Assembly: GCA_037176725.1 (NCBI GenBank)
Contig: JAZBRS010000035.1
Span: 50,354,001-50,418,000 of the forward strand
From: Posidonia oceanica
Lineage: Eukaryota; Streptophyta; Magnoliopsida; Alismatales; Posidoniaceae
Direction of reading: 5' to 3'
DNA: 64,000 nucleotides
Position 1 is the first letter of the stretch. Each line of letters starts with the position of its first letter. Of this stretch, positions 27,512 through 64,000 are shown in pieces. The notes under the pieces are model-generated. The model had not been told where the DNA came from and searched no databases. It saw only the letters and a list, made by a program, of their open reading frames with translations. Position numbers and translations under genes: made by a program.

Positions 27512-28184
27512 GCCTATGAATGCGCCTTTTCTCTTTTTAGGCTCGGACCGGAGGGGGGATCCAAAAGAGAGAGGTTTTCATGAATGGAGCGACGCAGAGA
27601 GGGGAAAGATAAAGAAAAGGGAGTCGCCACCTAGTCTATTCAATCGGGAGACGAGGAAAACCGGGGAAATGCATGAAGAACATGCAAAACTACACAAGAA
27701 GATGCAGTTCATTGCAAATGCTATGCAAAGAGGATATCTCGTACCAAGGACGAGGGCAAAAGGGTCATTGTGGGCCAGAGAAAGGGTAAGGACTCCTGTT
27801 ACGCGCGGGGAAGGTGTTAGGCACCCCCGACGTGCCCGAGAAGTGGTCTTTCTAGGCTTATGCTCGCTTTCGAGGGGAAATGCATGCTTCGAATGCCTAA
27901 ATGCCATGAATGCCTAATTGGATGCTCAAATGTGTGCTCTAAGTGTTGGAAGGCGTGCAAGGAATTAAACGTGCTATCTAAGTGCTCAGCAGCGCTGTCT
28001 GTGTTCCAAACTGGGCGAACCCTGGTTCGTGAGAACTCCAGGCAGTAAGCATCACTGCCCTATATGCAAATGCAGGCGACAAAACAAAACACCGATAAAA
28101 CAAGACAATGCAAGCGGCATGCAAGAGAAAACATTGTTAAACACACGAAACAGTGCGAGAGACAAGCGAAACAAAACATCGGAA

Positions 28185-28600
28185 AAGCGACGCAATGCAG
28201 GGGTAAGACAAGCAAAGGCGAAAGCAAAACTGGGCAAAAGACAAGCGATGCAATCGTAAAAGCAAGACAGCGGAAAAGCCATGCAATGCAGGGGTACGAC
28301 AAGTAAAGATGAAAGCAAATTCGGCCAGAAAACAAGCGATGCAAACGTAAAAGCAAGATAGCGGAAAAGCCACGCAATGCAGGGGTATGACAAGCAAAGA
28401 CGAAAGCAAATTCGGGTGGAAAACAAGCAATGCAAATGTAAAAGCAAAACATCGGAAAAGGCCACGCAATGCAGGGGTATGACAAGCAAAGGGGAAAGCA
28501 AATTCGGGCGGAAAACAAGCGATGCAAACGTAAAAGCGAAACATCGGAAAAGGCCACGCAATGCAGGGGTATGACAAGCAAAGGGGAAGATTAGACGACA
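28185..28600. repeat. About 92-bp tandem repeat in B LTR
   Basis: The CACGCAATGCAGGGGTATGA-type core recurs near 28190, 28277, 28369, 28462 and 28554, a period of 92-93 bp. Each period is itself about three related 30-31-bp units. It occupies the same position in the LTR as the 89-bp array in E3 and the 30-bp units in E1 and E4. Confidence 0.85.
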
Positions 28601-31878: not shown

Positions 31879-32091
31879 GGTGGCACAAGCTGCAAATGGG
31901 CTTGGGCTTTGGCCTAGATGTGTTGTAAAAGTTGCAAATAACTTGGTAAAGGCTTCTAGGACTTTGGGCAGGGTTTTGGGTTTGGTTTGGGCTAGAAGAA
32001 AAGGGTTAGAAAAGGGATGCCATTCCAGAGTCCATACGAGCCTGCAGGAGAAAACAACCAACTTCCGGGTTCTCAGAACGGGGTGTCTACA

Positions 32092-32469
32092 GTACCCCTA
32101 ACTACTCGTTTGGCAAACACGTCAATTTTGTCTCCACCCTTCGTATTTTGATGGCAAGGGCGCTTCAGTTGCCCCCTGGTATCCTTTCTGATACCAAGGG
32201 TTTTTTTTCTACTGTCCTGTGGTATCACTCCCCAGTTTTCCTTTGCGGTCGATGAGTCCGAAACTCATCCTTTCTAGTCGATAAGTCCGAAACTTGTCAC
32301 TTTTCTTTTGCTTTTCCGGTCGATGAGTCTAAAACTCATCCTTACCGGTCGATAAGTCTGAAACTTATCACTTTTCTTTTGTTTTTCCGGTTGATGAGTT
32401 CGAAACTCATCCTTTCCGGTCGATAAGTCCAAAACTTATCACTTTTCTTTTGTTTTTCCAGTCGATGAG
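32092..32469 (+). mobile_element. Fragment O: plus-strand relic of a Tat 3' repeat region
   Basis: The first 120 bp match the reverse complement of E3 40570-40710 (the region 3' of the accessory ORF). Then follow six complete repeat units in a 71-72-bp dimer, alternating a GATGAG arm and a GATAAG arm (dimer starts 32247, 32319, 32390, 32461). It is the only piece in the window whose sense direction is plus. It is flanked by the ends of B and F, so both inserted into an older opposite-strand element. Confidence 0.72.
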
Positions 32470-32956
32470 TGTAGCGGTCCCGAAATTCGAATCGTCCATG
32501 CACGATGCCAAAGCTCGCGTGCACCAATCGGAACTAGGTTCACTATATGCGGGTGTGACCTCTTCCCGGGAGCCCACGACAGGCCTTACATGCTGCCATA
32601 GCTCGCGATGCGATCGTGCCGTGAGAGGGGGGAGAAGCCGCTGCCGGTAGTGAATTCAAGGAGAAACTCGACTCGAAAATACTAGGAAAACGCGAAGATA
32701 AAAGAGATAAGACAAAAGGGAGTCGCCACCTAGTCTATTAAATCGAGAGACGAGGAAAACCGAGGAAATACATGAAAACATGCAGATAGATGTAATGTTA
32801 TGCAAAATGAATGACTCATGCCAAGGATTAAGGTAAAACGGTCATTGCGTGTCCAGAGAAAGGGTAAGGACTCCTGTTACGCATGGGGAAGGTGTTAGGC
32901 ACCCCCGACATGCCCGGAATCGGTCTTTCTTGACTATTCTCGCTCGCATTTACAGG
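32470..32956 (-). mobile_element. Fragment F: end of an LTR, interrupted by E3
   Basis: Starts with TGTAGCGG and carries the R/U5 features in order (primer-core motif 32720-32730, conserved block 32820-32950), then stops mid-LTR at 32956, where the E3 LTR begins with TGTAG. Left of it (32469) there is no primer site, so it is the outer end of a 3' LTR. The remainder should lie right of the whole E3/E4 nest. ATGAG (32465-32469) is the candidate target duplication. Confidence 0.65.
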
Positions 32957-35900
32957 TGTAGTAATCCCGGTGTTCGGATCGTCCATGCACGATGCCAAAG
33001 CTCGCGTGCACCGATCGGAATCAGGCTCACTATAAGCGGCTATGTCCGAGAAGGAAAACCTAACTCGAAAACATTTAAAAGAGAGAAAAAGGGAAAGGAA
33101 AGAAGAAGATAAGACAAAATCGGAGTCGCCACCAAGTCTATTAGATCGGGAGACAAGGAAAACCAGGGAAATGCGTGAATAATCACGCAAAACCAAGCAA
33201 AAGATGCAATGCAAGGCAATGCAGAAGAAATGAGATGCAAATGAATGCAAATGATGTGACTCGTGCCTAGGATAAGGGCAATATGGTCATTGCGGGCCAA
33301 GAGAGGGTAAGGACTCCTGTTACGTGCGGAGAAGGTGTTAGGCACCCCCGACACGCCCGAGAATCGGTCTTTCTAGGCTTACGCTCGCATATGCAGGGAA
33401 ATGTAGACTCTGAATGCCTAAGTGCCAATGAATGCCTATCTAAATGCTCAAAGGTGTGCTCTAAGTGATGAAAGACGATGCAAGGAAGTAAACGTGCAAT
33501 CTAAGCGCTCAGCAACGCTGTCTGTGTTCCGAACCGGACGAGACCTGGCTCGTGAGAACTCCGGACAGTAAGCATCACCGCCCTATATGCAAATGCAGGT
33601 GAAAAAAACGAAACAGCGAGAACACAATGCAATGCAATCGACAAGCAAAGGAAAGCGGCGTAAAACACGCAAAACAAGGCGAGAAACAAGAAAGGCACGC
33701 GGAACTGGGCAAAAGAACAGAACCGGCACGCAAAACAGGCGGGAAAGCAAGACTGCACGCAAAACGAGGCGAAAAAACTAAAGGGCACGCTAAACGGTGC
33801 AAGACAAAGAAGCGGCATGCAAAACGGTGCGAGAAAACAAGACAGCACTTAAAACGAGGCGAAAAACTAAAGGGCACGCAAAACGGTGCAAGACAAAGAA
33901 GCAGCACACAAAACGGTGCAAGAAAACAAGACTACACACAAAACGAGGCGAGAAAACTAAAGGGCACGCAAAACGGTGCAAGACAAAGAAGCGGCACGCA
34001 AAACGGTGCAAGAAAACAAGACTACACACAAAATGAGGCGAAAAACTAAAGGGCACGCAAAACGGTGCAAGACAAAGAAGCGGCACGCAAAACGGTGCAA
34101 GAAAACAAGACTACACACAAAACGAGGCGAAAAACTAAAGGGCACGCAAAACGGTGCAAGACAAAGAAGCGGCACGCAAAACGGTGCGAGAAAACAAGAC
34201 TACATACAAAACGAGGCGAAAAACTAAAGGGCACGCAAAACGGTGCAAGACAAAGAAGCGGCACGCAAAACGGTGCAAGAAAACAAGGCTGCATGCAAAA
34301 CGAGGCGAGAAAACTAAAGGGCACGCGAAACGGTGCAAGACAAAGAAGCGGCACGCAGAACGTTACAAGAAAACAAGGCTGCACGCAAAACGAGGCGAGA
34401 AAACTAAAGGGCACGCAAATCGATGCAAATGGCATGCAAATGAATGCAGTGCAAGGGTTCAGGAGGACATACCTGGAGATCCGGGAGTCTGATCGGAGAT
34501 CTGCTTGGTCCATGCTGAAGAGCACTTCGCTGCGGTCGCCTGGGCAGCTTACTTGTGGAGATCCGACGGTCGGATTGGAAGATGTCGCAGCTTCGGAGCA
34601 GAAGGGCCAGAACAGGGGAGAAGAACAGATCTAAGTGTTCAGGAGGCCCTAGGGGTGTGCTGAAGGTCCTCTCAAGTGAAGGGGAGTTAAAAGTGCTTAG
34701 TGTATGCAAAGGGGAGCTTAAATGCAAGATTAAATGGACGCAGAATGCATGCAAAAGCAAGAAAAGACAAGGAAAGGCAATTTGGAAAGAACGGGGGTTC
34801 GAAAGCATTTTTGAAAAAGAAAGGGGCTAAAATGCAAATTTTCCAGAAAACAGGGGTCCCGGGGAGTCCGGGAATGCAAGTGGAGGGCCTACATGCGATT
34901 TTGCAAGCATAGGTGTTAAAGTGCAACTTAGGGGGCAAAATGGTCCTTTTACATGATTTTTGAAAGATGCGAGGATCTATGTGTGATTTTCAAATCATGC
35001 AGGGTCTGAAAATACAATTTAGTATGGAAAACATGCTCTGGAATCATGGTCTGGGGACTGATATGCAATTTTTAAAAGATGCAGGGTTGAAAATGCAATG
35101 CAATAAGCTAAAATGCATGCAAAATGATTACTGTGCATTTAAAAAGGACCTATATGCAAAAATGAAGAAACAGGGGAATAAATATGCAATGCAGTATGCA
35201 AAAATCAGAAATAAAACCTAAGTTACTACAGTTCAGAGGGTCAGACAGTAAATATAAAAAACTAGAGGGGCCCAGAATGCAATTTTATATGGTAAAATAC
35301 ATGCAATTAAATTAGCTGATTTAAGACAGGATCTATACGCAAAAATCGAAAACAGGGGGGCTAAAGCATAAAACATTACAACTGAAACACACAATGACAG
35401 GACTAAAAAGCAAATACTGAAAAATATAAATAAAAACAGCAATTTAGCATGGTATTTAATTTAAAACTAAGCATAATAAATGGCAGAAGGACTGGAATGC
35501 AAAAATTGGAAAACTTAAGCTAAACATGCAATATTTACATTTAAACTATATAAGTAAGAAAATAAGTGAACAGTGGATCGCCGGCGGTCGACGAGCACTG
35601 TGGCAGAACGCCGGCAGTGCTCGTGACCGCCGACAGGGGAGGTTGGGGAGGCGCAGACCGGTGGAGCTTGGTGCTGGTGTTCGTCCGGAGCTCTGGAGAC
35701 CGCCGGGGCGGTGTTCCGCTGGCTGGAATGCCCCAGAAGACAAGCGGCCGGCGCCGGAGAAGACAGGAAGGTCGGCGAGTCACGGGCGGCACTGGAGGTC
35801 CGGAAATGCGGTTCTGGAGGGTCGAACAGCAGCAGGGGGAAGAGAGAGAGCGGGGGAGGCCAGGAGATACCTGCGGCTGTGTCCGGTGCGTCCTCCCGAC

Positions 35901-38508
35901 CTCAGCAGTGCCGGAGACGGCCGGCGGACGTCGTCTGATCGCTGCGGTGGACTCCGGGGGCTCGCGACGGTTGGAACGTCTTCAGGACGTTGCTCCGGTG
36001 CTTCTCGGTCGATCAGGCGGGAGTTCCGCAGCTTGACAAGAGATCCGGCGCTTGTGGGTCGACTGTGAGCTGCCGGAGGCCGGGGGAGTTGTCTGCTGCT
36101 CTCTGGCTTGGATGGAGTCTTCCGGAGGGCTGCTGGAGGTCCGGCGAAGGGATCTGGATGGTTGGCTGAGGGTTCTGGAGCGTGTGGCGCGAGTTTGAAG
36201 ATGGAGTGAAGCTTGGTCAGAAATGGCCGCAGGTGTTTGTTGTGGAAGGTTTCGCCTGTGGTGGGGGAGAAGGCTGAAGGTCGGGTGGCTTAGGGAGGTG
36301 GAGTCGCGGCGAGTGTCTGGGCAAAGTTTGGGAGGATGTGGTAGACTGTAGTGCGGGGAATTCCAGAAGGGAAGAGAGTTGGGTTCCGGTTGGGTTTCAG
36401 GTGGATTCAGGCGAAATGTGGGTTGCTTCCGGTGTAGAAAGGAGGGGAAGAGTTGCAGGGGGCTTCGGCGAGGTTGGGGGGTGAATTCTGAAGGATTCTC
36501 GGGGGGTCTCGGGTCTGGGTTTGCTGTGGAAGGAAGAGGCGGAAGGTCGGGTTTTCTGGGTGGATTTCAGAGGAAATTCTGCCCTCTCTCTCGCTGGGGA
36601 TTGCTTCGGAATGCTCCGTCCTCTCCCCGGGTGAACTCCCTCTTCTTCTCCTCTCCTTTTCTCCTGAAATTCACTCTGATCTCCCCTCCTTTTCCCCTCT
36701 GAATCCTGACCACTCCTCCCTTAGCTTTGCAGGTCTGCGACCAATGAATGCTGCGGAGAGGCGATGGCAGGAGCAAGGACGACGCTTCGGCGCACGCCAG
36801 TCCGGCTCGAGCAAGAGGTGACAGGTCGGGCAGAGCTGCAGGCCGGCGGACACTGTAGCACTGCAAACGCGGGAGGAGGGAAGGAGGAAGAAGGCGCTGT
36901 AGCTGTGGGCTGAGGTAAAAAAAAGGAAAAATAGGGTAATGGGCTGATGAGCCCAGTAAAGAAGAAAAGAAAGGATAAAAAGAAGAAAGAAAGAAAGATG
37001 GAAAGAAGGAGGGAAATAAAATAGGGAAAAAAAGATAAAAATAAACAAAAATATTAGATGAGTTGGGTTGTAGGTTAGGTGTTTAATTGGATTTTTTAAT
37101 GACTGTTTTTAGGTTGATTAGTGTGTTTTAGGCTTGATTAGGGTTTTAGGGCTTTCCTTTGTTGTTAATTCATTTTACACTTGATTAAGTGTCGGTTAAA
37201 TCTTTTAAAATTATTTTTTAAATTGTGTTTTTCTTGTTAAGCATTTAGGATATTAATTAGGATTTTTTAGGATTTATTTTTAGGTTAATTAGAGTGGGTT
37301 TTGGGCTTTTTAGCTTTAGTCTTTTAGGATTTTCTTTCTCAAGTCTTTTGAATTATGTTTTTGATTTTTATTTGTTGATTGTTTTTTAGTTGGGTTTTTC
37401 TGGTTTGATTAGGTGTTCTTAAGTCTTTCAACTGTATTTTCTTTTTCTTTTTTTTTAATTAAGTTTTATGTTATTTTTCCTATGTTCATTAGGTTAAGTC
37501 TTTTGCCTCCTTTAATTACTTGTTTTAGTATTTGATTTTTAATTCTTCTCTTTAGGGTTTGTTTTTTAATTCTTTTAGTGGGGTTTTTATTTTTGGTAGG
37601 TTCTGACTTTATTTCAGTTTTTTACTTGATTTTACAGTATTTTCTTTTAGTTTATTTTGCATGTTTTAGTTTGCATGCTTGATTTTCTTTTTAGCTTGAT
37701 TTAGTTAAGTTTGAGTTTTTAATCATTTATTTAATGTTTTTTAGTTGCTTTTCTTGGAATTCTGATTTGTTTCTTTTATGTTTTGGGGTTTTACAGATTT
37801 TTAAGGATTTTTATGGTTTTTTGCAAAGGAGAGAAGAAAGAAAAGGAAAAGAAGAAGAAAAGGGGAAAAAGGAAAATAAAAGGCAAAGAGATAGGTTTGA
37901 GGGAAAAGATTTTTTAAAATTCAGGGAAAATGTTAAAAATAAAATAAAAATAGGAATAAGATAGAGAAGGGATAGGAGTGCAAAGGGGGCCCACAGCCAA
38001 GCCAGAAAAAGGGCAAGAAGGGGATGAAAAGAGAGACGATAATCAGGAGAGAGAGAGGAGAGAGAAAACGATAATCCCGGAGAGAGAAAACGATAATTCC
38101 AGCAAATGGGGGTCTTAGAAGTCTCGGAAAGGGGTGAAACTTGGCGGGTGTGTAGTCTAGGGTCTCTAGTTTTGCTCCCAAAGTTTTGGTTTGGTTTTGA
38201 GGAAGTTTTGGAGGGGTTTTGAGCTGTAGAAAAAGGGTATTTTTGCCTAAGTTTCCTAGGGTTTTTGGGAGGGGTCCGGTTTGAGATTTTGCAGGCTTTT
38301 TGGTGGGTTTGCTAAGTCATCAGGGGTGAGTTTTCCTATGGATTTTGGTTGATTTCTGGGTTCGGGAAAGGGGGGTAATCCTAGGTTGAGTTTGGGCTTG
38401 CTTTGAGGGGGAAGAAGGAGAGGGAGGTGTGGATTTGGGTCTAGATTCGGGTCCAGCAGCCACCGGAAGGCTCCAAACGATCCAGCCTGTCAAAATGGGG
38501 TGTCTACA
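32957..38508 (-). repeat. E3 3' LTR (5,552 bp)
   Basis: From TGTAGTAATCCC to GTGTCTACA on the plus strand. It belongs to a different LTR subfamily from E1 and E4: it has an extra ACGATGCCAAAGCTCGCGTG-type segment near its end (shared with F), an 89-bp tandem array, and a diverged GC-rich middle (35560-36860). The T-rich sense-5' part (37050-37800) is recognisably the same as in E1 and E4. No gene seen. Confidence 0.85.
33780..34420. repeat. 89-90-bp tandem array in E3 LTR (about 7 copies)
   Basis: AGGGCACGCAAAACGGTGCA-type starts fall at 33961, 34050, 34139, 34228, 34318 and 34408, spacing 89-90 bp. Each unit is three about 30-bp subunits. Because 89 is not a multiple of 3 and stops are rare, several Lys/Arg- or Phe/Cys-rich open frames cross the array on both strands; they are by-products. 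Confidence 0.9.
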
Positions 38509-38524
38509 GATGCCCCTCCCTGAG
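38509..38524 (-). other. 3' polypurine tract of E3
   Basis: On the sense strand CTCAGGGAGGGGCATC abuts the LTR start TGTAGAC. E4 has the near-identical tract at 58845-58860. This is the standard plus-strand primer position. Confidence 0.82.
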
Positions 38525-38960
38525 TGAGGCCGAGCGAAGCGAGGCCGCTGCTCAGGGTTGACGGGACACCCCATTTGACCAGCGAGAGCAGAGGGTTGCT
38601 ATCGGCGTGAGCCACTTATTCGGCGGATGCGCCGAACATCGTGGATCGTTGCCGCAATGCAATGTGCGGGTGCAAATGGATGAGATGCAATGTATGCGAT
38701 GCATGCTAATGCGGATGCAATGCAAAAGTTAGCGCTAGAGTTAGTACCGATGGGGGGACCGAAACGACGCAGGTGACGCTGGCGATGCCAACGACGCTGA
38801 AGGGGGACGTTGCGGTGCACCGCGGAGCTTGACGGGAGGTCCAGACCTGCCACGAAAAGAAGGATAGCCAAAGCCACGAAGGCGTGACGGGAGAGGCGGA
38901 CCTTTTCCCGGACGTAGAAGGATGCGGGGCTCCGTCTTTTGGGACGAAGTCACGCGGGGA

Positions 38961-40080
38961 GGTGATAAGTTGTCGGACTTATCGACCGGATGAGTTTCGG
39001 ATCATCAGCCGAGGGCGATAGTTTACGGTCCTATCAACCGGAACGATAGTTTACGGTCCTATCAACCGGAAGGCGCAGTTGTGAGTGATAGTTACTGGGT
39101 ATCAGCCGTATAACATGGTTGCCATAGATAGTTTAGGATATCAGCCTAGATCGATAGTTTAGGTTATCAGCCTAGCGATAGTTTAGGTTATCAGCCTAGA
39201 TAGATAGTTTACAGTCCTATCAACTGGAAGGGGCAAACCATGAGTGATAGTTACTGGATATCAGCCGTATAACGCAAGTGCCGGATAGTTTAGGATATCA
39301 GCCTAGATAGATAGTTTAGGATATCAGCCTAGATAGTTTAGGTTATCAGCCTAGATCAATAGTTTAGGTTATCAGCCTGGCGGCATTGCGAGGGACAGTT
39401 ACTGGATGTCAGCCGTATAATGCAATTGCGATAGATAGTTTAGGATATCAGCCTAGATCGATAGTTTAGGGTATCAGCCTGGATCGATAGTTTAGGATAT
39501 CAGCCTAGATAGATAGTTTACAGTCCTATCAACTGGAAAGAGCAATTGCAAGGGATAGTTACTGGATATCAGCCGTATAACGTAATTGCCATAGATAGTT
39601 TAGGATATCAGCCTAGATCGATAGTTTAGGTTATCAGCCTAGATCGATAGTTTAGGATATCAGCCTAGATAGATAGTTTAGGATATCAGCCTAGATCGAT
39701 AGTTTACAGTCCTATCAACTGGAAAGGGCAATTACGAGGGACAGTTACTGGATGTCAGCCGTATAACGCAGATGCCGGATAGTTTAGGATATCAGCCTAG
39801 ATAGATAGTTTAGGATATCAGCCTAGCGATAGTTTAGGTTATCAGCCTAGATCGATAGTTTAGGTTATCAGCCTGGCGGCATTGCGAGGGACAGTTACTG
39901 GATGTCAGCCGTATAACACAATTGCGGGCCAACCATGGATCGGCCAGAAGATAGATAGTTTAGGAATATCAGCCTGAGAATAGATAGTTTAGGATATCAG
40001 CCTGAGAATAGATAGTTTAGGAATATCAGCCTGAGAGTGCTTGATTGTTGATAGTTTAGGATATCAGCCTAGGAGTGCTT
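38961..40080 (-). repeat. E3 array of short units with two interleaved inverted repeats (pseudoknot-like)
   Basis: About 1.1 kb made almost wholly of 20-27-bp units with the frame [arm 1]-GTTT-[arm 2]-N-[arm 1 complement]-(C)AG/A-[arm 2 complement]. Examples: 39017-39041 (GATAG/CTATC with CGGT/ACCG), 39127-39148 (GATA/TATC with TAGG/CCTA), 38989-39012 (GATGA/TCATC with TCGG/CCGA). A longer class (GAYAGTTACTGGAYRTCAGCCGTATAA) recurs every 150-190 bp and is often closed by CAATTGC...GCAATTG arms. It lies 3' of the accessory ORF in the untranslated region. Role unknown. Confidence 0.82.
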
Positions 40081-40189
40081 GATTGATGAATGATCGAGTG
40101 ATGAGTGATTGGTTGATGAGTGATTGAATGCTGAATGATTGATTGCTGAATGATTGATTGATGAGGGCTTGATTGCTTGATAAGAGGGG

Positions 40190-40440
40190 ATGAGATCATG
40201 ATGAGAGGCTACTTCTAAAGAGGGAGATGAGGTAATGATGAGAGTTATTGCTAAAGAAGGGGGGTGAGGTAATGATGAGAACTAATGCTAAAGAAGGGGG
40301 ATGAGGTAATGATGAGAACTAATGCTAAAGAAGGGGGGTGAGGTAATAATGAGAACTAATGCTAAAGAAGGGGGGTGAGGTAATGATGAGAACTAATGCT
40401 AAAGAAGGGGGTGAGATAATGATGAGAGCTTGATTGAAAA
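40190..40440. repeat. 37-bp tandem repeats in E3 3' region
   Basis: AATGCTAAAG recurs at 40284, 40321 and 40358, period 37 bp, about six copies with GGGGTGAGGTAATGATGAGA between. Two units of the GATAAG...CTTATC class follow at about 40443 and 40516. The E4 equivalent has a 35-bp period. Confidence 0.85.
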
Positions 40441-40562
40441 AGGTGATAAGATATCGGACTTATCGGCCGGCAAAGAGGAGATGAGATAATGATGAGATTG
40501 ATTGATTGGGAAAGGTGATAAGATATCGGACTTATCGGCCGGCAAAGAGGAGATGAGATAAG

Positions 40563-41002
40563 GGGTGAGATACCGCGGGGCCTCTGAAAAGATGCCCCTG
40601 GTATCAGGATGATGCCAGGGGATGGTCGAAACGTCCCTGGTATCGAGAAAAGCGAAGGGTGGACAAAACTGACGTGTCTGTCAGACGAGTAGTTTGGGGT
40701 ACCAGCCCAAAGGAGACTCAGCCGGGGATGTCCGGTGGCAGGTCGGACGGCGCGGGTTCGCGGAGGTCCTGGAGCCTGGGTCGTTTGCTGAGGACTTTCC
40801 TACGTCATGCGAGCAATCAGTCGGGCCAAGGGGCCTCCGGATGTGAGCGACGAGGAGCATAGAATGCATGATCAGCTTTGAAATGTGAACAGCCAGCACA
40901 ACACAGTTTTGCATTGATAGAATTGTTGGTTACATGCCCGTGACAGGCCAAAAAGTACAGCACAACTTGAAAGGAAGACAGAATGACAGCTGCATGATGG
41001 CT
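40563..41002 (-). other. E3 region between repeat arrays and accessory ORF
   Basis: Holds a long hairpin (GATACC...GGTATC, 40563 onward, with GGGGC/GCCCC inside) and a unit at 40689-40711 with GTA/TAC and TTTGGG/CCCAAA arms. It also contains the segment copied in reverse in fragment O. No coding frame is conserved. Confidence 0.55.
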
Positions 41003-42205
41003 CTAGCCGGTTCGGGCCTTCTTTGATTTTCCAAAGTCAGGGAATAAGGGACCGCTCGGCGGGACTTCGTCAATGGGCCAGAGGTCCTGTACTTCAGTGA
41101 TGTACTCAGGGGTACACCCTACACCTCTTATTGCAGCGATGTCTGTTGATCGCACCCCATGCTGCATCAGGTTGGCCAGCTCCTTCGTGGGGGCAATTGT
41201 ACTGAGGGGATATTCTTGAAGGAGCCTAGGCGCTGTGCTGTCGACAAAGGCGTCCTGCTGGAAGCCGAACTGACGCATGACTCTGATAGGGTGATATTCT
41301 ACACCCGCAGTAAATCCTGGTAGCACAGCCAAACGCATGTCGCGTGTATTGAAGAAGACAGTGAACGCTTCGGCTGCAGAAGGAATGATGCGCCAAGTGA
41401 CTGTGTCGTCTGTCAGTCCCGATAGCCTTTCATATTCTTCCTTGACGCTCTTGACTGCCTTGGCGTGGCCGCTGCTGCAGTAGGCCTCGAAAGCATGCAC
41501 TTGGGGGCGCAGAAGGTCTATCTCAGTGTGCGCCGCTAGCCAGACCTGAACGAATGATCCGCAACCATGAAAGTGGCGGCAGCGATGCGAGATGCGGTCG
41601 AGACCGCGGTAGGTTTCTGCCAAGACAACCGGTGCTAGGTCTATCTTGCGAGTCACCACGGCGAGTGCTATTTCAGCGATCTCGACGGCCACTGTTACCT
41701 TGCCATGAGTAAAGGCCAGCTCGCCTAGGAAACGGGTGACAAACCCTCGGAGCCACAGCTCATCTCCGAGTTCAGTGCGCTTTTCCACAATATCATCAAA
41801 GTACACTAGGCGAAGCAGGGGCATGGGCCCGCTAGTACAAATCAGCTTCTGCTGGCAACTTTGGGTAGAGAGGCCGGTCAGCTGTTTCAGGAATGCCATG
41901 TATCCGTCACGCCTCATGAAGATGGGCGGCCCCAAGATCTTGGAAAAGCCGCAGATCCGGCGCACTTCTTCCAGTGTAGGTGTCAGTTCAATTCTGCCGA
42001 AACGGAAGACATGGTGTGCTGGTTTCCAGAATCGCGCAGCAGCACACAGAAGATGGCGGCTTACTTCTACATCAGCAGCCTTGAGCAGTTTGGTCGGAAT
42101 GCCCCACAGGCGCAACTTCTCACAATCATCTTTTGTAAGCCTGCCGATCCATTCTCGCAGGATCTCGGAGCAGTGTGTGGGGGTTACCAAGGTGGGGAAA
42201 CCCAT
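41003..42205 (-). CDS. E3 accessory protein, plant-mobile-domain/DUF7745-like, 400 aa, intact
   Basis: 400 codons from the conserved ATG (MGFPTL, 42203-42205) to the stop at 41003. The same length and roughly three-quarters identity to the E4 copy show a real protein kept through divergence. The N-terminal half (CSE.LREWI, KLRLWGIPTKLLKAADVEVSRHLL, FWKPAHHVFRF, LTPTLEEVRRICGFSKILG) reads like the plant mobile domain/DUF7745 group, known from transposons and from MAIN/MAIL-type host proteins. The middle has GDELWLRGFV and a Cys/His cluster (HRCRHFHGCG). The C-terminus is basic (KSKKAR). It has no signal peptide or membrane segment. It follows pol on the same strand, where retroviruses place env, but does not look like one. 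The open frame reaches 42352, allowing an N-terminal extension by splicing. Confidence 0.85.
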   Translation of the reverse strand: MGFPTLVTPTHCSEILREWIGRLTKDDCEKLRLWGIPTKLLKAADVEVSRHLLCAAARFWKPAHHVFRFGRIELTPTLEEVRRICGFSKILGPPIFMRRDGYMAFLKQLTGLSTQSCQQKLICTSGPMPLLRLVYFDDIVEKRTELGDELWLRGFVTRFLGELAFTHGKVTVAVEIAEIALAVVTRKIDLAPVVLAETYRGLDRISHRCRHFHGCGSFVQVWLAAHTEIDLLRPQVHAFEAYCSSGHAKAVKSVKEEYERLSGLTDDTVTWRIIPSAAEAFTVFFNTRDMRLAVLPGFTAGVEYHPIRVMRQFGFQQDAFVDSTAPRLLQEYPLSTIAPTKELANLMQHGVRSTDIAAIRGVGCTPEYITEVQDLWPIDEVPPSGPLFPDFGKSKKARTG

Positions 42206-43544
42206 TGCACAAATTGCAGGACTTGGGCAGACGGCCGTTACAAGAGTCTTCAGATACCTGTTGCCAAGACTGTGAATTATCAGAGCTCGTATAGGCACAA
42301 AACCATCATAGGAAAGCAGATTCTGAAACTGGCAGAAATAGGTGCAACACATTTAGCAGTAAACACTCAGACTATGGCAATTGAACATGTATAAGCATAA
42401 GGGCATTCTGTTGATGTGGCGGGGACTGTCGGGAACCCCGGGTTGTCGCAGCCTGACGGTGCCAACGCATGCTAGGTAGAGGTACTGTCTCAACGCTGGA
42501 GTAAGCCTTTGCGGAGTGGGATGGTCCGAGAGGGTGGAGATGACTGGAAAATGCAGATGCGTGTGATTTGGTGTAGTTTGCCCTCAGTATCGGAGTGCTT
42601 TGGTGCCTGCTGTATGGAAAGGGAGCGGTCCTTAACTCATCGGACTCTACTCGGACTCCTGACTTGTTGGTGGCACTCTAGGGAAAGGTATGGGTGATGT
42701 TTGGTGGTGGTGTAGAGAGGACGGGCTCCATGCCAAACTCTCAAGGACTTACACTCACTCCTACCTCTTTCTTCTCTCTTTTTTCTTTTAATGTGTCGGT
42801 GTGCAGAGCTCTCCTCATTCCCATTTTGGAAGCAAGGAGGACCTGACCCGGGCTTTGACTCTTTTCTGGGGTAGGTGAGAGGTGCGGGGTTACCCTGCTT
42901 GCCTTTATTCTCTTCTTTTTCTTCTTTTTTCTTTTTTTTTTTTTTTTTTTTTGCGGGAATGGGGCCTTTCCCCCTTCTCCCTTTTCTTTTCTATCATTCT
43001 CTTTTGTTTTTTTGTTCCTTTTTCCTTCTTTTTTTTTCCTTTCTTTTTTGGCTTGCAGGTTTCCGCTGTTCCCTCCCCCAGGGGAGATGGGCGTTAGGGT
43101 CTTTCGGGTACAGACTTTTAGCTCTCTCTCTTTCTCTCTCTTTTTCCGCACATCTAGGCTGGGATATATACTGCTTTCTGACTAACACCTAGCACTCTTC
43201 TAAAGGGCGTAAGTCCTTAGGGGTTTGGGCATTTCGCCCGCTCTCATTGAGTGGTGGCTCCCTCACTAGTCAAGACATCTAAGTAGTATCAGGTGAGGTC
43301 GGGAGACTCCTTTCGCAGCAGGCAGGCACCTCTGGTTTTCATCACCGGGCAACTATGCAATGCATGATTTGATGAAGAATGTGAACGGGATGAGCGGGGA
43401 TGCACAGGAGTGCTGCAACGTCAGGAAATGTAGGAAACGGGACGAAGTGAAGTATGGAGGAGATAGAGCGAAAAGAGATACAAAGACATGCGAGTGGCGA
43501 GAACACGACAAATGGGAGGAAGAATTCGCAATGGCTACTCCCAG
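42206..43544 (-). other. E3 spacer between pol and accessory ORF
   Basis: Contains a homopurine tract on the sense strand (about 42757-43060, with a 24-nt T run on the plus strand near 42930) and a block near 43245-43350 shared with E1. A CAG/GTA acceptor-like site lies at 42260-42258, 52 nt before the accessory ATG; E4 has the same at 63460-63458. No gene. Confidence 0.55.
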
Positions 43545-53689: not shown

Positions 53690-53935
53690 AAGAGCGAAAC
53701 CGTCACGCAAAACGAGCGGAAAACAAGGCAGCGCGCAAAACGAGACAAGAGAGCAGGAAGGTACGCAAAACAGGACGAGAAAACAGAATGGTACGCAAAA
53801 CGGGGCGAAAGAATAAAACTGGCACGCAAAACGAACGAGAAGGCAAGACAGTGCGCAAAACGAGACAAGAAAACAGATGGGCACGCAAAACGGAGCGAAA
53901 ACGAGGGCGGGCACGCGAAACGGCGCCAAAACGGT
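53690..53935. repeat. About 30-bp degenerate tandem repeats in E4 LTR
   Basis: The CACGCAAAAC-type core recurs about every 30 bp (near 53704, 53731, 53762, 53793, 53823, 53853, 53882, 53914). E1 has the same field at about 12540-12800. In E3 and B the same unit has become a trimer of 89-93 bp. Confidence 0.75.
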
Positions 53936-59385: not shown

Positions 59386-60440
59386 CGATAAGGTGACGGG
59401 CTTATCGTCCGGATAGTTTACGGTCCTATCAACCGGGAGTGACAGTTTACGGTCCTGTCAACCGGAGCAGTTGTGAGTGATAGTTACTGGATATCAGCCA
59501 TATAACATGGTTGTGGGTGATAGTTTAGGAGTATCATCCTAACGACAGTTTACGGTCCTGTCAACCGGTGGATAGTTTACAGACCTATCAACTGGAGGAT
59601 AGTTTACAGACCTATCAACTGGAACCCACAAACCATGAGTGATAGTTACTGAATATCAGCCGTATAACGCAATGCCGGATAGTTTACAGTCTATCATCTG
59701 GAACGACAGTTTACGGTCCTGTCAACCGGCGGATAGTTTACAGTCCTATCAACTGGTGGATAGTTTACAGTCCTATCAACTGGAAACAGCATTGCGAGGG
59801 ACAGTTACTGGATGTCAGCCGTATAACATCATTGCGCGTGGTAGTTTACAGTCCTACCAACTGGTGGATAGTTTACAGACCTATCAACTGGAGCGACAGT
59901 TTACGGTCCTGTCAACCGGCGGATAGTTTACAGACCTATCAACTGGAAACGCGCAATGATGAGGGATAGTTACTGGATATCAGCCGTATAATGCAATTGC
60001 GGGTGATAGTTTAGGAGTATCAGCCTAACGACAGTTTACGGTCCTGTCAACCGGTGGATAGTTTACAGACCTATCAACTGGAGGATAGTTTACAGTCCTA
60101 TCAACTGGAAACCGCAATTGCAAGGGACAGTTACTGGATGTCAGCCGTATAACGTAATTGCACGCGGTAGTTTACAGTCCTACCAACTAGAGCGACAGTT
60201 TACGGTCCTGTCAACCGGTGGATAGTTTACAGACCTATCAACTGGAAAAGTGCAATTACGAGGGACAGTTACTGGATGTCAGCCGTATAACACAACTGCG
60301 GGCCAACCATGGATCGGCCAGAAGATAGTTTAGGTTATCAGCCTGAGAGTGATTGATTGTTGTTAGTTTCGGATATCAGCCTAGCACGAGTTTGATAGAT
60401 TGATAGTTTCGGATATCAGCCTAGCACGAGTGGTTGATTG
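59386..60440 (-). repeat. E4 array of short units with two interleaved inverted repeats (pseudoknot-like)
   Basis: Same architecture as E3 38961-40080, but dominated by different unit classes. Examples: 59412-59436 (GATAG/CTATC with CGGT/ACCG), 59441-59465 (GACAG/CTGTC with CGGT/ACCG), 59840-59864 (GGTAG/CTACC with CAGT/ACTG). Arm 1 and arm 2 each change together with their partner. The longer GTTACTGGAYRTCAGCC class punctuates the array. Confidence 0.82.
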
Positions 60441-61165
60441 ATTGATAAGAGGGGGCAAGATCATGATGAGAATGATAAGATATCGGACTTATCGGCCGGC
60501 AAAGAGGGGATGAGGTAATGATGAGAAGTTGATCTAAAGAGGGGGGTGAGATCATGATGAGAAATTAATCTAAAGAGGGGATGAGATAATGATGAGAAAT
60601 TAAGCTAAAGAGGGGATGAGATAATGATGAGAAATTAAGCTAAAGAGGGGATGAGATCATGATGAGAAATTAATCTAAAGAGGGGATGAGATCATGATGA
60701 GAAATTAATCTAAAGAGGGAGATGAGATCATGATGAGAAATTAAGCTAAAGAGGGGGGGAGATCATGATGAGAAATTAAGCTAAAGAGGGGATGAGATCA
60801 TGATGAGAAATTAATCTAAAGAGGGAGGTGAGATCATGATGAGAAATTAAGCTAAAGAGGGGGGTGAGATCATGATGAGAAATTAAGCTAAAGAGGGGAC
60901 GAGATCATGATGAGAAATTAAGCTAAAGAGGGAGATGAGATCATGATGAGAAATTAAGCTAAAGAGGGGGGTGAGATCATGATGAGAAATTAAGCTAAAG
61001 AGGGGGGTGAGATCATGATGAGAAATTAAGCTAAAGAGGGGATGAGATCATGATGAGAAATTAAGCTAAAGAGGGGACGAGATCATGATGAGAAATTAAG
61101 CTAAAGAGGGGATGAGATCATGATGAGAAGTTAAGCTAAAGAGGGGATGAGATCATGATAAGAAT
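60441..61165. repeat. 35-bp tandem array in E4 3' region (about 19 copies)
   Basis: GATGAGAAATTAAGCTAAAG followed by AGGGGATGAGATCAT, period 35 bp (for example 60602 to 60637), very regular. GATAAG...CTTATC units bracket it at 60474-60500, 61166-61192 and about 61219. The E3 counterpart has only about six copies with a 37-bp period. Confidence 0.88.
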
Positions 61166-62207
61166 GATAAGATATCGGACTTATCGGCCGGCAAAGAAGG
61201 GGTAAGGGAATGATGAGAATGATAAGATATCGGACTTATCGGCCGGCAAAGAAGGGGTAAGGGAATGATGAGAAGAAACCATCCCTATGACGCCAGGAAC
61301 GTCATAGGGGAAAGGGGGAGAGAATGATACCGTGGGGCGATCAAAAGATGCCCTTGGTGTCGGGATGACACCAGGGGTTGGCCAGCGCGTCCATGGCATC
61401 GAAAGCAGAGAGTGATGACAAGAGTGTCGTGCTTGTCAGACGAGTAGTTTGGGGTACCAGTCCGCAAGGGATTCAGCTGAGGGCGATCAGCTGGGGACTC
61501 AGCTGGGGTGACCAGCCGAGAAGAGTGTTAGGTTGACGGACCTTTCGCCGAGCAGTTTGGGGTGCCAGCTCGTAGAGGATGGTGGTCCAGCTGGGGGCGA
61601 CCAACTGGGGATGACCAACCGAGAAGAGGACTCAGCTGGGGATGATCAGCTGGGGATGATACCACCGGGCGACCAAAAGATGCCCCTGGTATCAGGATGA
61701 TACCAGGGGATGGTCGGTACGCCCCTGGCATCAGGATGCAAGGACAGATAGGCGAGTGGATGGATGATAGGTTGACGGACCCATCGCCGAGCAGTTTGGG
61801 GTGCCAGCCCACGAGGGACTCAGCTGAGGATGAACAGCTGAGGAGGATAACAGGTTGACGGACCTTTCGCCGGGCAGTTTGGGGTGCCAGCCCGTAGAGG
61901 ATGGTGGTCCAGCTGGGGGCGACCAACTGGGGATGCCGGACAGCGGAGCTGAGTGTCGCGGGCCTGCAGATGCTCTGGGCTCCGGATTGGGTGCTGAAGA
62001 CTTCGCCGCGCTGGGATGTCTGCAAGTCTGATTAGAGGGCCCAAGATAATGATGATGATGATATGCAATGCAGCAAAGAGTCTTGATGTGCAAGCAGAAA
62101 GCAGAAACAGTTTTTATTGATATGATCTTGATAAGTACAATGCCTGAGGCAGGCCAGAAAAGCACAGCACAAATTGAAAGAAGACCACATGATGGTCGCA
62201 CAAGGGC
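61166..62207 (-). other. E4 region between repeat arrays and accessory ORF
   Basis: Two GATAAG units, then hairpins around CCCCTGGTATC and GATACCAGGGG (61680-61715), then four units of the GxA-GTTT-GGGG-TxC class (near 61447, 61552, 61791, 61876) with GTA/TAC or GCA/TGC arms. No ORF is shared with E3. Confidence 0.55.
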
Positions 62208-63410
62208 CTAGTCAACCCGGGCCTTCTTCGGCTGCCTGGAGTCGGGGAACAAGGGGCCGCCTGGCGGGACTTCAGTGATTGGCCAGAGCTGTCGGACTTC
62301 CGCTTCATAATCAGAAGTGCATCCAGTACCTCTCACGGCTGCAACGTCTGTAGATTGGACCCCATGCTGCATCAGACTAGCAAGCTTCTTGGTTGGGGCA
62401 GTGGTGCTGAGAGGATAAGTCTGTAGAAGCTCGGGCGCTGTACTGTCGATGAAGGCGCCCTGCTGGAAGCTGAACTGGCGCATGACCCTGATTGGATGGT
62501 ACTCTACGCCTGCTGTGAAGCCTGGAAGAATGATCAACCGCGTGTCACGCGCGCTGAAGAAGATTGTGAATGGCTCTGCTGCAGAGGGAATGATGCGCCA
62601 GATCACAGCGTCGTCAGTCAATGCTGACAGCCTCTCGTATTCGTCTTTGACGCTCTTGTCTGTTCTGGTACGGGCGCTACTGCAGTAGGCTTCAAAAGCA
62701 TGCACTTGAGGGCGCAGGAAGTCCATTTCTAAGTGCGCGATCAGCCAGACTTGTATAAGTGCTCCGCAACCGTGGAAGTGGCGGCAGCGATGAGAAATGC
62801 GGTCCAGCCCGCGATAAGTCTCTGCCAAGACAACTGGTGCCAGGTCTATATGCTGGGTCACCACAGCTAGTGCAATCTCTGCAACCTCGATGGCCACTGT
62901 CAATCGGCCATGAGTAAAGATTAGTTCGCCCAGAAAGCGGATGACGAATCCTCGGAGCCACAGCTCATCTCCGAGGTCAGCACGCTTGTTCAAGATTTCA
63001 TCAAAGTGTGCAAGGCGAAGCATAGGCTCTTGTCCATTGGTGCAGATTAGCTTTTGTTGGCAGGCTTGAGTGGAGAGTCCAGTCAGTTGGTTCAGGACTC
63101 GGAGATATCCGTCGCGCCTCATGAAGACAGGCGGCCCCAAGATCTTTGAAAAGCCGCAGATCCGACGCACCTCTTCCAGTGTAGGTGTCAGCTCAGTCTT
63201 GTTGAAACGGAAGACATGATGCGCCGGCTTCCAGAATCTCGCGGCGGCACACAGAAGGTGGCGGCTGACCTCCACATCAGCAGCCTTTAGCAGCTTAGTT
63301 GGTATGCCCCACAGGCGCAACTTTTCACAGTCTTGTAGAGTGAGCCTGCTGATCCATTCTCGCAGGGTTTCCGAGCAGTGTGCGGGAGTCAACAGAGTAG
63401 GAAAACCCAT
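62208..63410 (-). CDS. E4 accessory protein, plant-mobile-domain/DUF7745-like, 400 aa, intact
   Basis: 400 codons from the conserved ATG (63408-63410) to the stop at 62208, exactly the length of the E3 protein. Conserved blocks: KLRLWGIPTKLLKAADVEVSRHLL, FWKPAHHVFRF, TLEEVRRICGFSKILGPP, MRRDGY, GDELWLRGFV, a Cys/His cluster (HRCRHFHGCG), PQVHAFEAYCSS, WRIIPSAAE, PGFTAGVEYHPIRVMRQF, MQHGVQSTD and a basic tail (QPKKAR). No enzyme motif is evident. Substitutions against E3 cluster outside these blocks. The frame is open upstream to 63545, and a CAG/GTA acceptor-like site lies at 63460-63458, so a spliced form with extra N-terminal residues is possible. Domain naming is from memory. Confidence 0.87.
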   Translation of the reverse strand: MGFPTLLTPAHCSETLREWISRLTLQDCEKLRLWGIPTKLLKAADVEVSRHLLCAAARFWKPAHHVFRFNKTELTPTLEEVRRICGFSKILGPPVFMRRDGYLRVLNQLTGLSTQACQQKLICTNGQEPMLRLAHFDEILNKRADLGDELWLRGFVIRFLGELIFTHGRLTVAIEVAEIALAVVTQHIDLAPVVLAETYRGLDRISHRCRHFHGCGALIQVWLIAHLEMDFLRPQVHAFEAYCSSARTRTDKSVKDEYERLSALTDDAVIWRIIPSAAEPFTIFFSARDTRLIILPGFTAGVEYHPIRVMRQFSFQQGAFIDSTAPELLQTYPLSTTAPTKKLASLMQHGVQSTDVAAVRGTGCTSDYEAEVRQLWPITEVPPGGPLFPDSRQPKKARVD

Positions 63411-64000
63411 TGCACTGGTTGCAAAAGACAGGCTGATTGCTGCAAGGCTTGAGGTACCTGCTATCAATAAATAGTCAGATCTCGCAGGCATATAATCTTT
63501 GACAACAAGCAGAAGCTGAGACTGAAAGTGTAGTTCCATATGCATTCAGCAGTTGATAACAGAACATAGCAGTTAAGCACAAGTGAATAAAGGGAATTGG
63601 CAGCAGTCCGGTGAAAAGCGGGGGCGAGGGCCGGCAGGGGATGTGGACTGGCGCAGCTTGAGTGTCGCCGATGTGCCTCTGCTGGGGAAGAGTACTGTCT
63701 CAGGGCCTGAGCGTGTTGCAGAGCGGAGGGATTGGCGGAAGGGGAAAGGAAAGAAGGAAGATGCATGAATGCAAGATGCTAGTGATATGCTTATGTGGAT
63801 GAATATTATTGGATGACTAAGTATGTTTGAATGGATGGATATGCTTGGGTGGATGCTTGAATGCCCTCAGCGTACGGAGTGCTTTGGTGCCTGCTGCAGA
63901 GGAAGGGAGTGGTCCTTGACTCACTGGGCCCTACTCAGACTCTCGGCTTATTGGTGGCGCTCCGGAACAGGTCGTTGGCGTTATACAGGTGGTGATGTGG
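63411..64000 (-). other. E4 spacer upstream of accessory ORF, cut by window edge
   Basis: Nearly identical to E1 358-983; the purine tract and pol are expected beyond 64000. No gene. Confidence 0.7.

What the first reader, a model, noticed from the sequence alone, without database searches (positions are those of the whole stretch)
38961..40080. Array of covarying, interleaved inverted repeats: dozens of predicted H-type RNA pseudoknots in the element's 3' UTR (E3)
Seen: each 20-27-bp unit has arm 1, then arm 2, then the complement of arm 1, then the complement of arm 2. The arms change in step: GATAG/CTATC, GATGA/TCATC, GATAAG/CTTATC and GTA/TAC for arm 1; CGGT/ACCG, CAGT/ACTG, TAGG/CCTA, TCGG/CCGA and TTTGGG/CCCAAA (40689-40711) for arm 2, while GTTT and CAG between them stay fixed. 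Known: this interleaved order is the topology of an H-type pseudoknot, and the linkers in the sense RNA (about 1-3 nt, 1 nt, and 3-4 nt) fit a compact one. Inference: the 3' UTR folds as a string of pseudoknots, perhaps for RNA stability, translation or packaging. I know of no such array described in LTR retrotransposons.
Basis: partly seen in the sequence, partly recalled or inferred. Interest (0 to 1): 0.88.

Follow-up and report, generated by a model that had tools for sequence, protein, structure and literature searches.

The report
Six-way pseudoknot RNA in retrotransposon
The tail of a jumping gene, present in roughly twenty thousand copies in one (likely plant) genome, carries six copies of a short sequence and six matching pairs of arms that are predicted to fold its RNA into a six-way hub hung with knots, which would likely serve to gather proteins on the element's RNA; no match to it turned up in the RNA-family and paper searches made here.

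Summary
Interleaved inverted repeats fill 38964-40711 (33 sense units; shuffles mean 5.1, max 11), a second element's 3' UTR (59386-61245), and the genome (124,093 exact hits of one unit). Both stems covary. Loop lengths come close to an H-type pseudoknot's steric limits on the sense strand and miss them on the antisense strand. The new finding is an overall plan. Inside the array a 27-nt unit, D, recurs exactly six times in 29 of the 32 fetched arrays that contain it. The flanks between successive D units form five complementary arm pairs, and the outermost flanks form a sixth. True partners average -13.5 kcal/mol against -6.5 for other combinations. Plain RNAfold finds 165 of 174 of these helices. 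The pseudoknot content of the arms differs widely between arrays, yet the six-D, six-helix plan stays, about 0.8 kb long. I read this as a cis-acting RNA scaffold, predicted to fold as a six-way junction with pseudoknot arms, and likely a multivalent protein-docking element of the genomic RNA, like a Rev-response element. The structure is well supported by sequence; the function is inferred. No RNA was probed; one genome only.

The parts
39071..39929 (-). six-D junction domain ('ring') of element E3, 859 nt, between the PMD ORF and the 3' LTR
39890..39916 (-). D0 unit (GACA/TGTC type)
39740..39766 (-). D1 unit
39554..39580 (-). D2 unit
39394..39420 (-). D3 unit
39246..39272 (-). D4 unit
39087..39113 (-). 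D5 unit
39917..39929 (-). P0 5' arm (outer helix); pairs with 39071-39084
   Evidence: one mismatch in E3, 9 bp without mismatch in E4
39071..39084 (-). P0 3' arm
39874..39887 (-). P1 5' arm; pairs with 39767-39779
39767..39779 (-). P1 3' arm
39724..39737 (-). P2 5' arm; pairs with 39581-39593
39581..39593 (-). P2 3' arm
39538..39551 (-). P3 5' arm; pairs with 39421-39433
39421..39433 (-). P3 3' arm
39378..39391 (-). P4 5' arm (same letters as the P1 5' arm in E3); pairs with 39273-39285
   Evidence: in E3 the MFE does not show P1 and P4 as drawn
39273..39285 (-). P4 3' arm
39230..39243 (-). P5 5' arm; pairs with 39114-39126
39114..39126 (-). P5 3' arm
38964..39068 (-). pseudoknot units 3' of the junction: C type 38964-38988, GATGA type 38989-39012, B type 39017-39040 and 39045-39068
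39127..39875 (-). A and B pseudoknot units inside the five arms (AAAA, BAAAA, BAAA, AAAA, BAAA)
39954..40071 (-). A-type units 5' of the junction
40445..40541 (-). two C-type pseudoknot units (CGG/CCG, GATAAG/CTTATC)
40662..40711 (-). two units near the ORF: GACAGA/TTTGTC unit 40662-40687 and TGGG/CCCA unit 40688-40711
41003..42352 (-). plant mobile domain (PF10536) ORF 3' of pol, same strand
   Evidence: PMD 72.8 bits (cut-off 34.9)
38509..38520 (-). purine-rich stretch, taken as the polypurine tract before the 3' LTR start (TGTAGACACC from 38508); read from sequence, inferred
59463..60303 (-). homologous six-D junction domain of element E4, 841 nt, arms BBB, BBBA, BBBB, BBB, BBBA
59386..59464 (-). 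pseudoknot units 3' of the E4 junction
60474..61245 (-). E4 C-type units (60474-60498, 61166-61190, 61221-61245) flanking a 35-bp tandem repeat
62208..63545 (-). PMD ORF of E4
   Evidence: 71.9 bits
32246..32446 (+). fragment with six C-like units (GATGAG/CTCATC, GATAAG/CTTATC), several with stem-1 mismatches, in the opposite orientation

Best explanation
The 3' untranslated region of this likely Tat/Ogre-type plant LTR retrotransposon carries six copies of a 27-nt unit (D) and six complementary arm pairs, mostly partner-specific, which are predicted to fold the sense RNA into a six-way junction whose arms are strings of H-type pseudoknots, and which would likely work as a multivalent protein-docking element, in the manner of a Rev-response element, that takes unspliced genomic RNA out of the nucleus towards translation and packaging. 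Shown here by sequence: the interleaved arms; their covariation; the six D units in 29 of 32 fetched arrays; the partner preference of the six arm pairs; the persistence of this plan while the unit content of the arms differs. Calculated: loop lengths near the steric limits on the sense strand and short of them on the antisense strand. Predicted: the three-dimensional fold. Inferred: that a protein binds the D units (the most uniform units seen) cooperatively, that the element's own 3' ORF protein (PMD) or Gag is that protein, and that export and packaging are the steps served. My split: RNA structure under selection about 0.85; sense strand about 0.7 (lowered from 0.75 on re-reading); docking platform about 0.5; export as the main step about 0.3.
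For: Units. Covariation of both pseudoknot stems; genome-wide 47,428 compensated against 924 with one arm changed. D units: 189 in 32 arrays, 160 of them exact to the 27-nt pattern; at stem-2 pair 3 there are 106 T-A, 82 C-G, 1 other and no half-change. Six D units in 29 of 32 arrays. Arm pairs: adjacent mean -13.4 kcal/mol (157), outer -14.1 (32), other combinations -6.5 (930); the ring pairing ranks 1st among all permutations in 15 of 32 arrays and 2nd in the other 17. In E3 the equal-scoring rival merely swaps P1 and P4, whose 5' arms have the same letters. Over 174 helices in 29 arrays, 13 of 870 cells in the first five arm positions are unpaired although every position has at least two pair types; the first seven pairs all form in 129 of 174 partners against 110 of 870 non-partners; partners are 88.4% paired against 73.7% (max 75.9) shuffled within an array and 83.1% (max 84.4) within a slot. 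Unconstrained MFE has 165 of 174 helices, all six in 23 of 29 arrays, with 6 non-partner helices. Four kinds of arm content, one plan. Genome counts of exact matches: D 113,987, first D with outer arm 21,283, last D with outer arm (shorter pattern) 25,945. Of the first 60 listed first-D sites, all on one contig, 49 have a listed last-D partner, span 460-875 bp, median 820. Geometry. Functional analogy: the 3' ORF protein CERV of the Ty3/gypsy element Cer1 is needed for gRNA export (PMC10309623, passages); Rev multimerizes on the RRE (PMC4829213, passages); Ogre transcripts of pea and Medicago are partially spliced and PMD occurs in 57% of Ogre elements (PMC6317226, passages).
Against: No RNA data. 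One genome; 20 of the 31 fetched loci were chosen next to PMD ORFs 94-96% identical to E3's, so they are not independent. By at 6.5 A per nucleotide, and ignoring the 1-nt L2, only C units meet both loop limits on the sense strand; A and B units are one nucleotide short unless an end pair opens. Half-changed pairs do not favour the sense strand: in sense terms A-C outnumber G-U (recurrent 15 to 6, private 50 to 21). Some recurrent units break a pair: C x A at the outermost stem-1 pair in 129 of 609 A units, T x T at the innermost in 19 of 217 B units. Of the 100 first-D sites listed, 3 are half-changed. In both alignments the number of pairs with changes on both sides is not above shuffles (351 of 500; 73 of 500). 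With a +9.6 kcal/mol pseudoknot penalty the pseudoknot beats a single hairpin in 4 of 10 unit types, with +7.0 in 10 of 10 (recalled parameters). The antisense strand also folds 140 of 174 helices, its whole-domain z-scores are similar, and its duplex energies are no worse. Three arrays have five D units and one PMD-linked locus (L068) has none. Three PMD-bearing loci of another kind show no array in the 2.8 kb fetched from each, which weakens PMD as the ligand.
Confidence: 0.45

Rival explanations
1. The domain is a 3' translation and stability element, a larger relative in function of the tobamovirus upstream pseudoknot domain: pseudoknots bind elongation factor and stand in for or help the poly(A) tail.
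For: Consecutive pseudoknots in the 3' UTR of a plant RNA virus do this: the TMV UPD has three pseudoknots, binds eEF1A/GTP and can replace a poly(A) tail (PMC4683447, passages). Position in a 3' UTR.
Against: The TMV UPD is a short string without a ring of long arm pairs; LTR transcripts are normally polyadenylated (recalled). A fixed six-fold plan is not needed for this role.
Confidence: 0.2
2. The domain is a packaging or Gag-assembly signal: six D sites are presented to Gag, which forms hexamers.
For: Six D units in 29 of 32 arrays; retroviral CA forms hexamers and Cer1 GAG is predicted to (PMC10309623, passages); Ty1 RNA carries a functional pseudoknot (PMC11381356, passages).
Against: The Ty1 packaging sequences described lie at the 5' end (PMC5454406, abstract start in the listing); retroviral ones too (recalled). 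No binding data.
Confidence: 0.2
3. Only single hairpins form: in each unit either stem 1 or stem 2 pairs, and the interleaved order reflects a switch or chance, not a pseudoknot.
For: One hairpin is at least as stable as the pseudoknot in 6 of 10 unit types under the harsher penalty; several units break one end pair; A and B loops are tight.
Against: Both stems covary and intact two-stem units occur in tens of thousands of exact copies.
Confidence: 0.13
4. A DNA-level by-product: tandem duplication plus arm-to-arm templated repair makes and keeps the inverted repeats; there is no RNA function.
For: Retand elements often carry tandem repeats between pol and the 3' LTR with no known function (PMC11963269, abstract and passages); P1 and P4 share their 5' arm letters in E3.
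Against: Duplication would give every module the same arms, but partners pair far better than non-partners (first seven pairs in 129 of 174 against 110 of 870). D number and span vary little while unit content differs.
Confidence: 0.1
5. An antisense transcript, not the genomic RNA, is the functional strand.
For: Antisense also folds 140 of 174 helices; half-changes are more often G-U in antisense.
Against: On that strand a 1-2 nt loop would have to cross 4-6 bp of shallow groove, which needs 4-5 nt; the domain lies in the sense 3' UTR.
Confidence: 0.07

Closest known systems
Upstream pseudoknot domain (UPD) of tobamovirus 3' UTRs
   Same: consecutive pseudoknots in the 3' UTR of a plant RNA (PMC4683447, passages)
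   Different: three pseudoknots before a tRNA-like end; no six-way junction, no D units, no arm pairs enclosing pseudoknot clusters (as far as the passages and recall go)
Retroviral Rev-response element / constitutive transport element
   Same: structured RNA in retroelement gRNA that recruits export proteins, Rev in many copies; accessory 3' ORF as possible partner (PMC4829213, PMC10309623, passages)
   Different: not built of pseudoknot arrays (recalled); here no ligand is known and the export role is untested
3' tandem repeats of Tat-lineage (Retand, Ogre) elements
   Same: same place between pol and the 3' LTR; repeats in about half of recent Retand elements (PMC11963269, abstract and passages)
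   Different: there described as tandem arrays of unknown function, with 0 occurrences of 'secondary structure' or 'pseudoknot'; here the array has a fixed plan
Pseudoknots of Ty1/Ty3 genomic RNA
   Same: pseudoknots in LTR-retrotransposon RNA (PMC11381356, passages)
   Different: those named there are single ones, at the 5' end (Ty1) or in GAG and POL (Ty3), not arrays in the 3' UTR

Membership tests
H-type RNA pseudoknot (unit level) | interleaved order S1a-S2a-S1b-S2b | tested here: met
   33 and 29 sense units in E3 and E4, a few of them likely chance
H-type RNA pseudoknot (unit level) | both stems covary | tested here: met
   42 and 56 genome-wide for one pair; but pairs changed on both sides are not above shuffles in number
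H-type RNA pseudoknot (unit level) | L1 long enough for the deep groove of S2 and L3 for the shallow groove of S1 | tested here: inconclusive
   (ideal coaxial helix, no L2): sense C units meet both limits, A and B are one nt short unless an end pair opens; antisense is two to three nt short
H-type RNA pseudoknot (unit level) | both stems formed in RNA | not testable with these tools
   needs chemical probing or NMR
Tat/Ogre-type Ty3/gypsy LTR retrotransposon | RT, RNase H, extra RNase H, then integrase | tested here: met
   RVT_1, RT_RNaseH, RVT_3, rve in that order in the first element and, over several ORFs, in E3; reading RVT_3 as the extra RNase H is inferred
Tat/Ogre-type Ty3/gypsy LTR retrotransposon | gag | tested here: inconclusive
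   Retrotrans_gag in the first element; no gag match in the E3 ORF scanned, 49188-50720
Tat/Ogre-type Ty3/gypsy LTR retrotransposon | plant mobile domain extra ORF, reported in 57% of Ogre elements | tested here: met
   PF10536 in 41003-42352 and 62208-63545; percentage from PMC6317226 (passages)
Tat/Ogre-type Ty3/gypsy LTR retrotransposon | phylogenetic position of RT within Ogre | not tested
   no tree was built; Ogre is a lead from the PMD domain
Tobamovirus-type upstream pseudoknot domain | short string of pseudoknots directly before a tRNA-like 3' end | tested here: not met
   arrays of dozens of units grouped by six helices; no tRNA by ARAGORN (which may miss viral tRNA-like ends) and no Rfam match
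Tobamovirus-type upstream pseudoknot domain | binds eEF1A and supports translation | not testable with these tools
   needs binding and reporter assays
RRE/CTE-type export element | multi-helix RNA between the coding region and the 3' LTR | tested here: met
   (predicted helices)
RRE/CTE-type export element | promotes export of unspliced RNA through a viral or host receptor | not testable with these tools
   inferred by analogy only
Any Rfam family | score over gathering threshold | tested here: not met
   0 matches on the window; best in 38900-40760 is E 0.23, below gathering

The most novel reading that the evidence does not exclude
A new class of giant cis-acting RNA in LTR retrotransposons: a hexavalent ring in which six near-identical pseudoknot modules (D) alternate with six partner-coded helices and present six sites to a hexameric or cooperatively assembling protein (Gag or the PMD protein). 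The pseudoknot-studded arms act as replaceable armour or spacers. It would be a plant counterpart of Rev/RRE built from pseudoknots.
Probability: 0.33. Interest if true: 0.95.

Novelty: categorically new. Interest (0 to 1): 0.85.

Why it matters
Tandem repeats between pol and the 3' LTR of large plant retrotransposons have been known for years without a function; a 2025 survey still calls their origin and function unknown (PMC11963269, passages). If at least some of these arrays are precisely organised RNA machines, that question becomes testable, and some 20,000 genomic copies supply natural compensatory mutations for structure work. It would also be, as far as the searches named in the full report reach, the first six-fold, pseudoknot-armed RNA junction in a retroelement.

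Tried and rejected
Ribozyme reading (hammerhead- or twister-like cores in GATGAGTCCGAAAC and CTGATA): no Rfam match on the window at gathering, best in 38900-40760 E 0.23 and unrelated. Chance: rejected by shuffles and by reversed-pattern controls of 0 in every genome pattern search that answered. Free tandem expansion: rejected by the six-D count and narrow span. Helix energy, z-scores or G-U half-changes as proof of the sense strand: they do not discriminate. My first groove calculation had the strand direction wrong, so the grooves were swapped; one search replaces it. Relatives outside this genome: pattern and protein scans of viral contigs gave nothing relevant; one 20-mer pattern hit three viral contigs, taken as chance or convergence; one genome-contig scan gave 0. 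PMD-bearing loci of another kind (L074-L076) show no array in the stretches fetched. One of the 49 A rows (from L012:3817-3838) is likely a chance match and was left in. Not obtained: counts of the other half-change (GATAG..CTGTC) and of the base type, because the tool stayed busy.

Full report
SETTING. The window holds several LTR retrotransposons, the main ones read on the minus strand. In the first element Pfam finds gag, an aspartic protease below its cut-off, RT, RNase H, a second RNase H (RVT_3) and integrase; in the element called E3 it finds RT, RNase H, RVT_3 and integrase over several ORFs, and no gag in the ORF scanned. After pol on the same strand lies an ORF with the plant mobile domain, PMD (41003-42352 and 62208-63545). 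PMD is reported in 57% of Ogre elements (PMC6317226, passages), so Tat/Ogre is the likely lineage; no tree was built. The finding lies between the PMD ORF and the 3' LTR of E3. A second complete 3' UTR (E4) lies at 59386-61245; the longest alignment of the two arrays is 73% identical. The window's own genome is held: 2.96 Gb, 80 contigs, unnamed.

OBSERVATION. With G-U allowed, 33 sense units lie in E3 and 29 in E4, against shuffle means of 5.1 and 6.1 and maxima of 11 and 9; a few of these are not family members. One 20-nt unit pattern occurs 124,093 times in the genome, its reversed control 0 times.

UNIT LEVEL. I fetched 31 further loci from the genome: 11 from the first pattern listing and 20 downstream of PMD matches 94-96% identical to E3's (20 of 94 scored). 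With E3 and E4 this gives 33 sequences. Units fall into families A, A with a 2-nt L2 (A4x), A with 5-bp stem 2 (A5), B and C: 609, 92, 51, 217 and 102 units. Stem-1 position 2 shows AT and GC in A, CG and TA in A5, AT and GC in B. Stem-2 position 2 shows AT 569 and GC 36 in A. Stem-2 position 3 shows TA 198 and CG 19 in B with no half-change. Genome-wide, GACAG..CTGTC occurs 47,428 times and the half-changed GACAG..CTATC 924 times; the opposite half-change could not be counted. On distinct haplotypes, cells paired and covariation score exceed shuffles (A: 88.8 against 87.0%, 1 of 500; 0.115 against 0.087, 0 of 500; B: 92.6 against 88.9%, 0 of 500; 0.215 against 0.136, 0 of 500), while the number of pairs changed on both sides does not (351 and 73 of 500). 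Exceptions recur: C x A at the outer stem-1 pair in 129 of 609 A units, T x T at the inner stem-1 pair in 19 of 217 B units.

STRAND. In sense, stem 1 is 3-4 bp with a 3-4 nt L3 and stem 2 is 4-6 bp with a 1-2 nt L1. A-form geometry (constants recalled, ideal stacking, no L2) gives a deep-groove span of 15.2, 12.7 and 10.4 A for 4, 5 and 6 bp and a shallow-groove span of 18.8 to 29.7 A for 3 to 6 bp. At 6.5 A per nucleotide, C units meet both limits; A and B units are one nucleotide short unless an end pair opens. The antisense strand would need 4-5 nt where it has 1-2. So sense is near-feasible and antisense is not. Against this, half-changes do not favour sense: A-C exceeds G-U 15 to 6 among recurrent cells and 50 to 21 among private ones. 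That may reflect cytosine methylation contexts (inference). Rough energies are marginal: the pseudoknot beats one hairpin in 4 of 10 unit types with a +9.6 penalty and in 10 of 10 with +7.0 (recalled parameters).

THE HIGHER ORDER. One unit, D (TTATACGGCTGAYATCCAGTAACTRTC), differs from the rest. Allowing three substitutions it occurs exactly six times in 29 of the 32 arrays that contain it, five times in three (L021, L022, L056), and not at all in L068. Of 189 D units 160 are exact; its stem-2 pair 3 is T-A in 106 and C-G in 82, with 1 other and no half-change; in the 100 first-D sites listed, 3 are half-changed. It is the most uniform unit: 85% exact, against 66% for the two commonest A haplotypes and 71% for the two commonest B haplotypes. 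Exact genome counts are 113,987 for D, 21,283 for the first D with its outer arm and 25,945 for the last D with its outer arm by a shorter pattern. The ratio of all exact D to first D is 5.4, where six equal and equally conserved copies would give about 6. Of the first 60 listed first-D sites, 49 have a listed last-D partner, 460-875 bp apart, median 820.

The flank after each D pairs with the flank before the next, and the flank before the first D with the flank after the last. Mean duplex energies are -13.4 kcal/mol (157 adjacent), -14.1 (32 outer) and -6.5 (930 other combinations in the same arrays). Over all 720 (or 120) assignments the ring order ranks first in 15 of 32 arrays (E4, L012-L022, L056, L057, L073) and second in 17. 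In E3, the one of the 17 that I took apart, the rival ties exactly because P1 and P4 5' arms share letters; in E4, L013, L015 and L017 the ring order wins by 5 kcal/mol or more. In the first five positions of 174 helices 13 of 870 cells are unpaired, although pairs 1-5 show CG/TA, GC/AT, CG/TA, AT/GC/CG and AT/GC. The first seven pairs all form in 129 of 174 partners and 110 of 870 non-partners. Shuffling arms within arrays lowers pairing from 88.4 to 73.7% (max 75.9), and within slots across arrays to 83.1% (max 84.4). RNAfold without constraints puts 165 of 174 of these helices in the MFE, all six in 23 of 29 arrays (4 of 6 in E3), with 6 non-partner helices; antisense 140 of 174. Four arrays tested against 20 shuffles each have sense z-scores from -2.8 to -3.5 and antisense ones from -0.2 to -4.2.

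The arms carry 2-7 pseudoknot units each. By eye four kinds of content occur: E3-like (20 arrays), E4-like (3), L013-like (4), L017-like (2); for example AAAA/BAAAA/BAAA/AAAA/BAAA against BBB/BBBA/BBBB/BBB/BBBA. The hub is thus kept while its decorations differ. Tandem duplication alone would give all modules the same arms; instead most arms prefer their partner. I take this as strong evidence for selection on RNA folding.

FUNCTION (inferred). The position between the last ORF and the 3' LTR, a fixed multi-helix plan and six near-invariant modules suggest a docking platform. Retroviral RREs and CTEs export intron-containing gRNA (PMC4829213, abstract and passages). [quoted passage not shown] Ogre transcripts of pea and Medicago are partially spliced (PMC6317226, passages). 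Export with Gag or PMD as ligand is my lead; translation (UPD-like; PMC4683447, passages) and packaging are close rivals. Three other PMD-bearing loci show no array in the 2.8 kb fetched from each, which counts against PMD alone.

NOVELTY. Rfam gives no match at gathering on the window. Paper searches on pseudoknot plus LTR retrotransposon plus tandem repeats, Tat/Ogre 3' repeats, the unit letters themselves, retrotransposon RNA structure and packaging, PMD with retrotransposons and Ogre with RNA structure terms listed no title or abstract start describing such an array; most listed papers were not opened. These cover open-licence papers only; Macas 2009, a key paper on these repeats, was seen only as a citation.

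Noticed in passing
window 32075-32470 (+): A fragment with the LTR-end motif GGGGTGTCTACAG, a GGCAAA/TTTGTC unit and six GATGAG/GATAAG units lies in the opposite orientation to the neighbouring elements; it looks like a chimeric remnant of another element's 3' UTR.
   Followed up: partly
window 17809-17815: The first element's LTR similarity ends where the pol similarity of a second element resumes, so the first looks nested in the second.
   Followed up: no
window 36903-38508 and 57213-58844: Only one LTR-like block seems to lie between successive head-to-tail elements, as if they shared an LTR.
   Followed up: no
window 12576-12801, 33665-34428, 53643-53926: A 30/89-bp tandem repeat (CACGCAAAACGG..) recurs in the leader regions of three elements; a 91-bp repeat lies at 28172-28588.
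   Followed up: no
window 40186-40427 and 60501-61164: A 35-37-bp purine-rich tandem repeat (AAAGAGGGGATGAGATCATGATGAGAA..) sits beside or between C-type pseudoknot units in both 3' UTRs.
   Followed up: no
G000:C62:0.36-1.86 Mb: Listed PMD matches are often spaced about 25.5 kb apart over a long stretch, all on one strand, suggesting a tandem array of a large PMD-bearing unit.
   Followed up: no
L001:4568-4587 and L002:482-501: Two viral contigs with the same flanking sequence carry the exact A-type 20-mer just upstream of what looks like a gene start, a possible phage pseudoknot leader.
   Followed up: partly
L003:1004-1103: A third viral contig has the 20-mer inside a near-threshold Twister-P5 ribozyme match (36.6 bits, gathering 37.6).
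   Followed up: partly
window 40662-40687, 32 kb fragment, other loci: A unit near the ORF keeps stem 2 as GACAAA/TTTGTC, GACAGA/TTTGTC, GACGAA/TTTGTC, GGCAAA/TTTGTC or GACAAG/CTTGTC; the one-sided changes are G-U in the sense strand except one copy with a C x A.
   Followed up: partly
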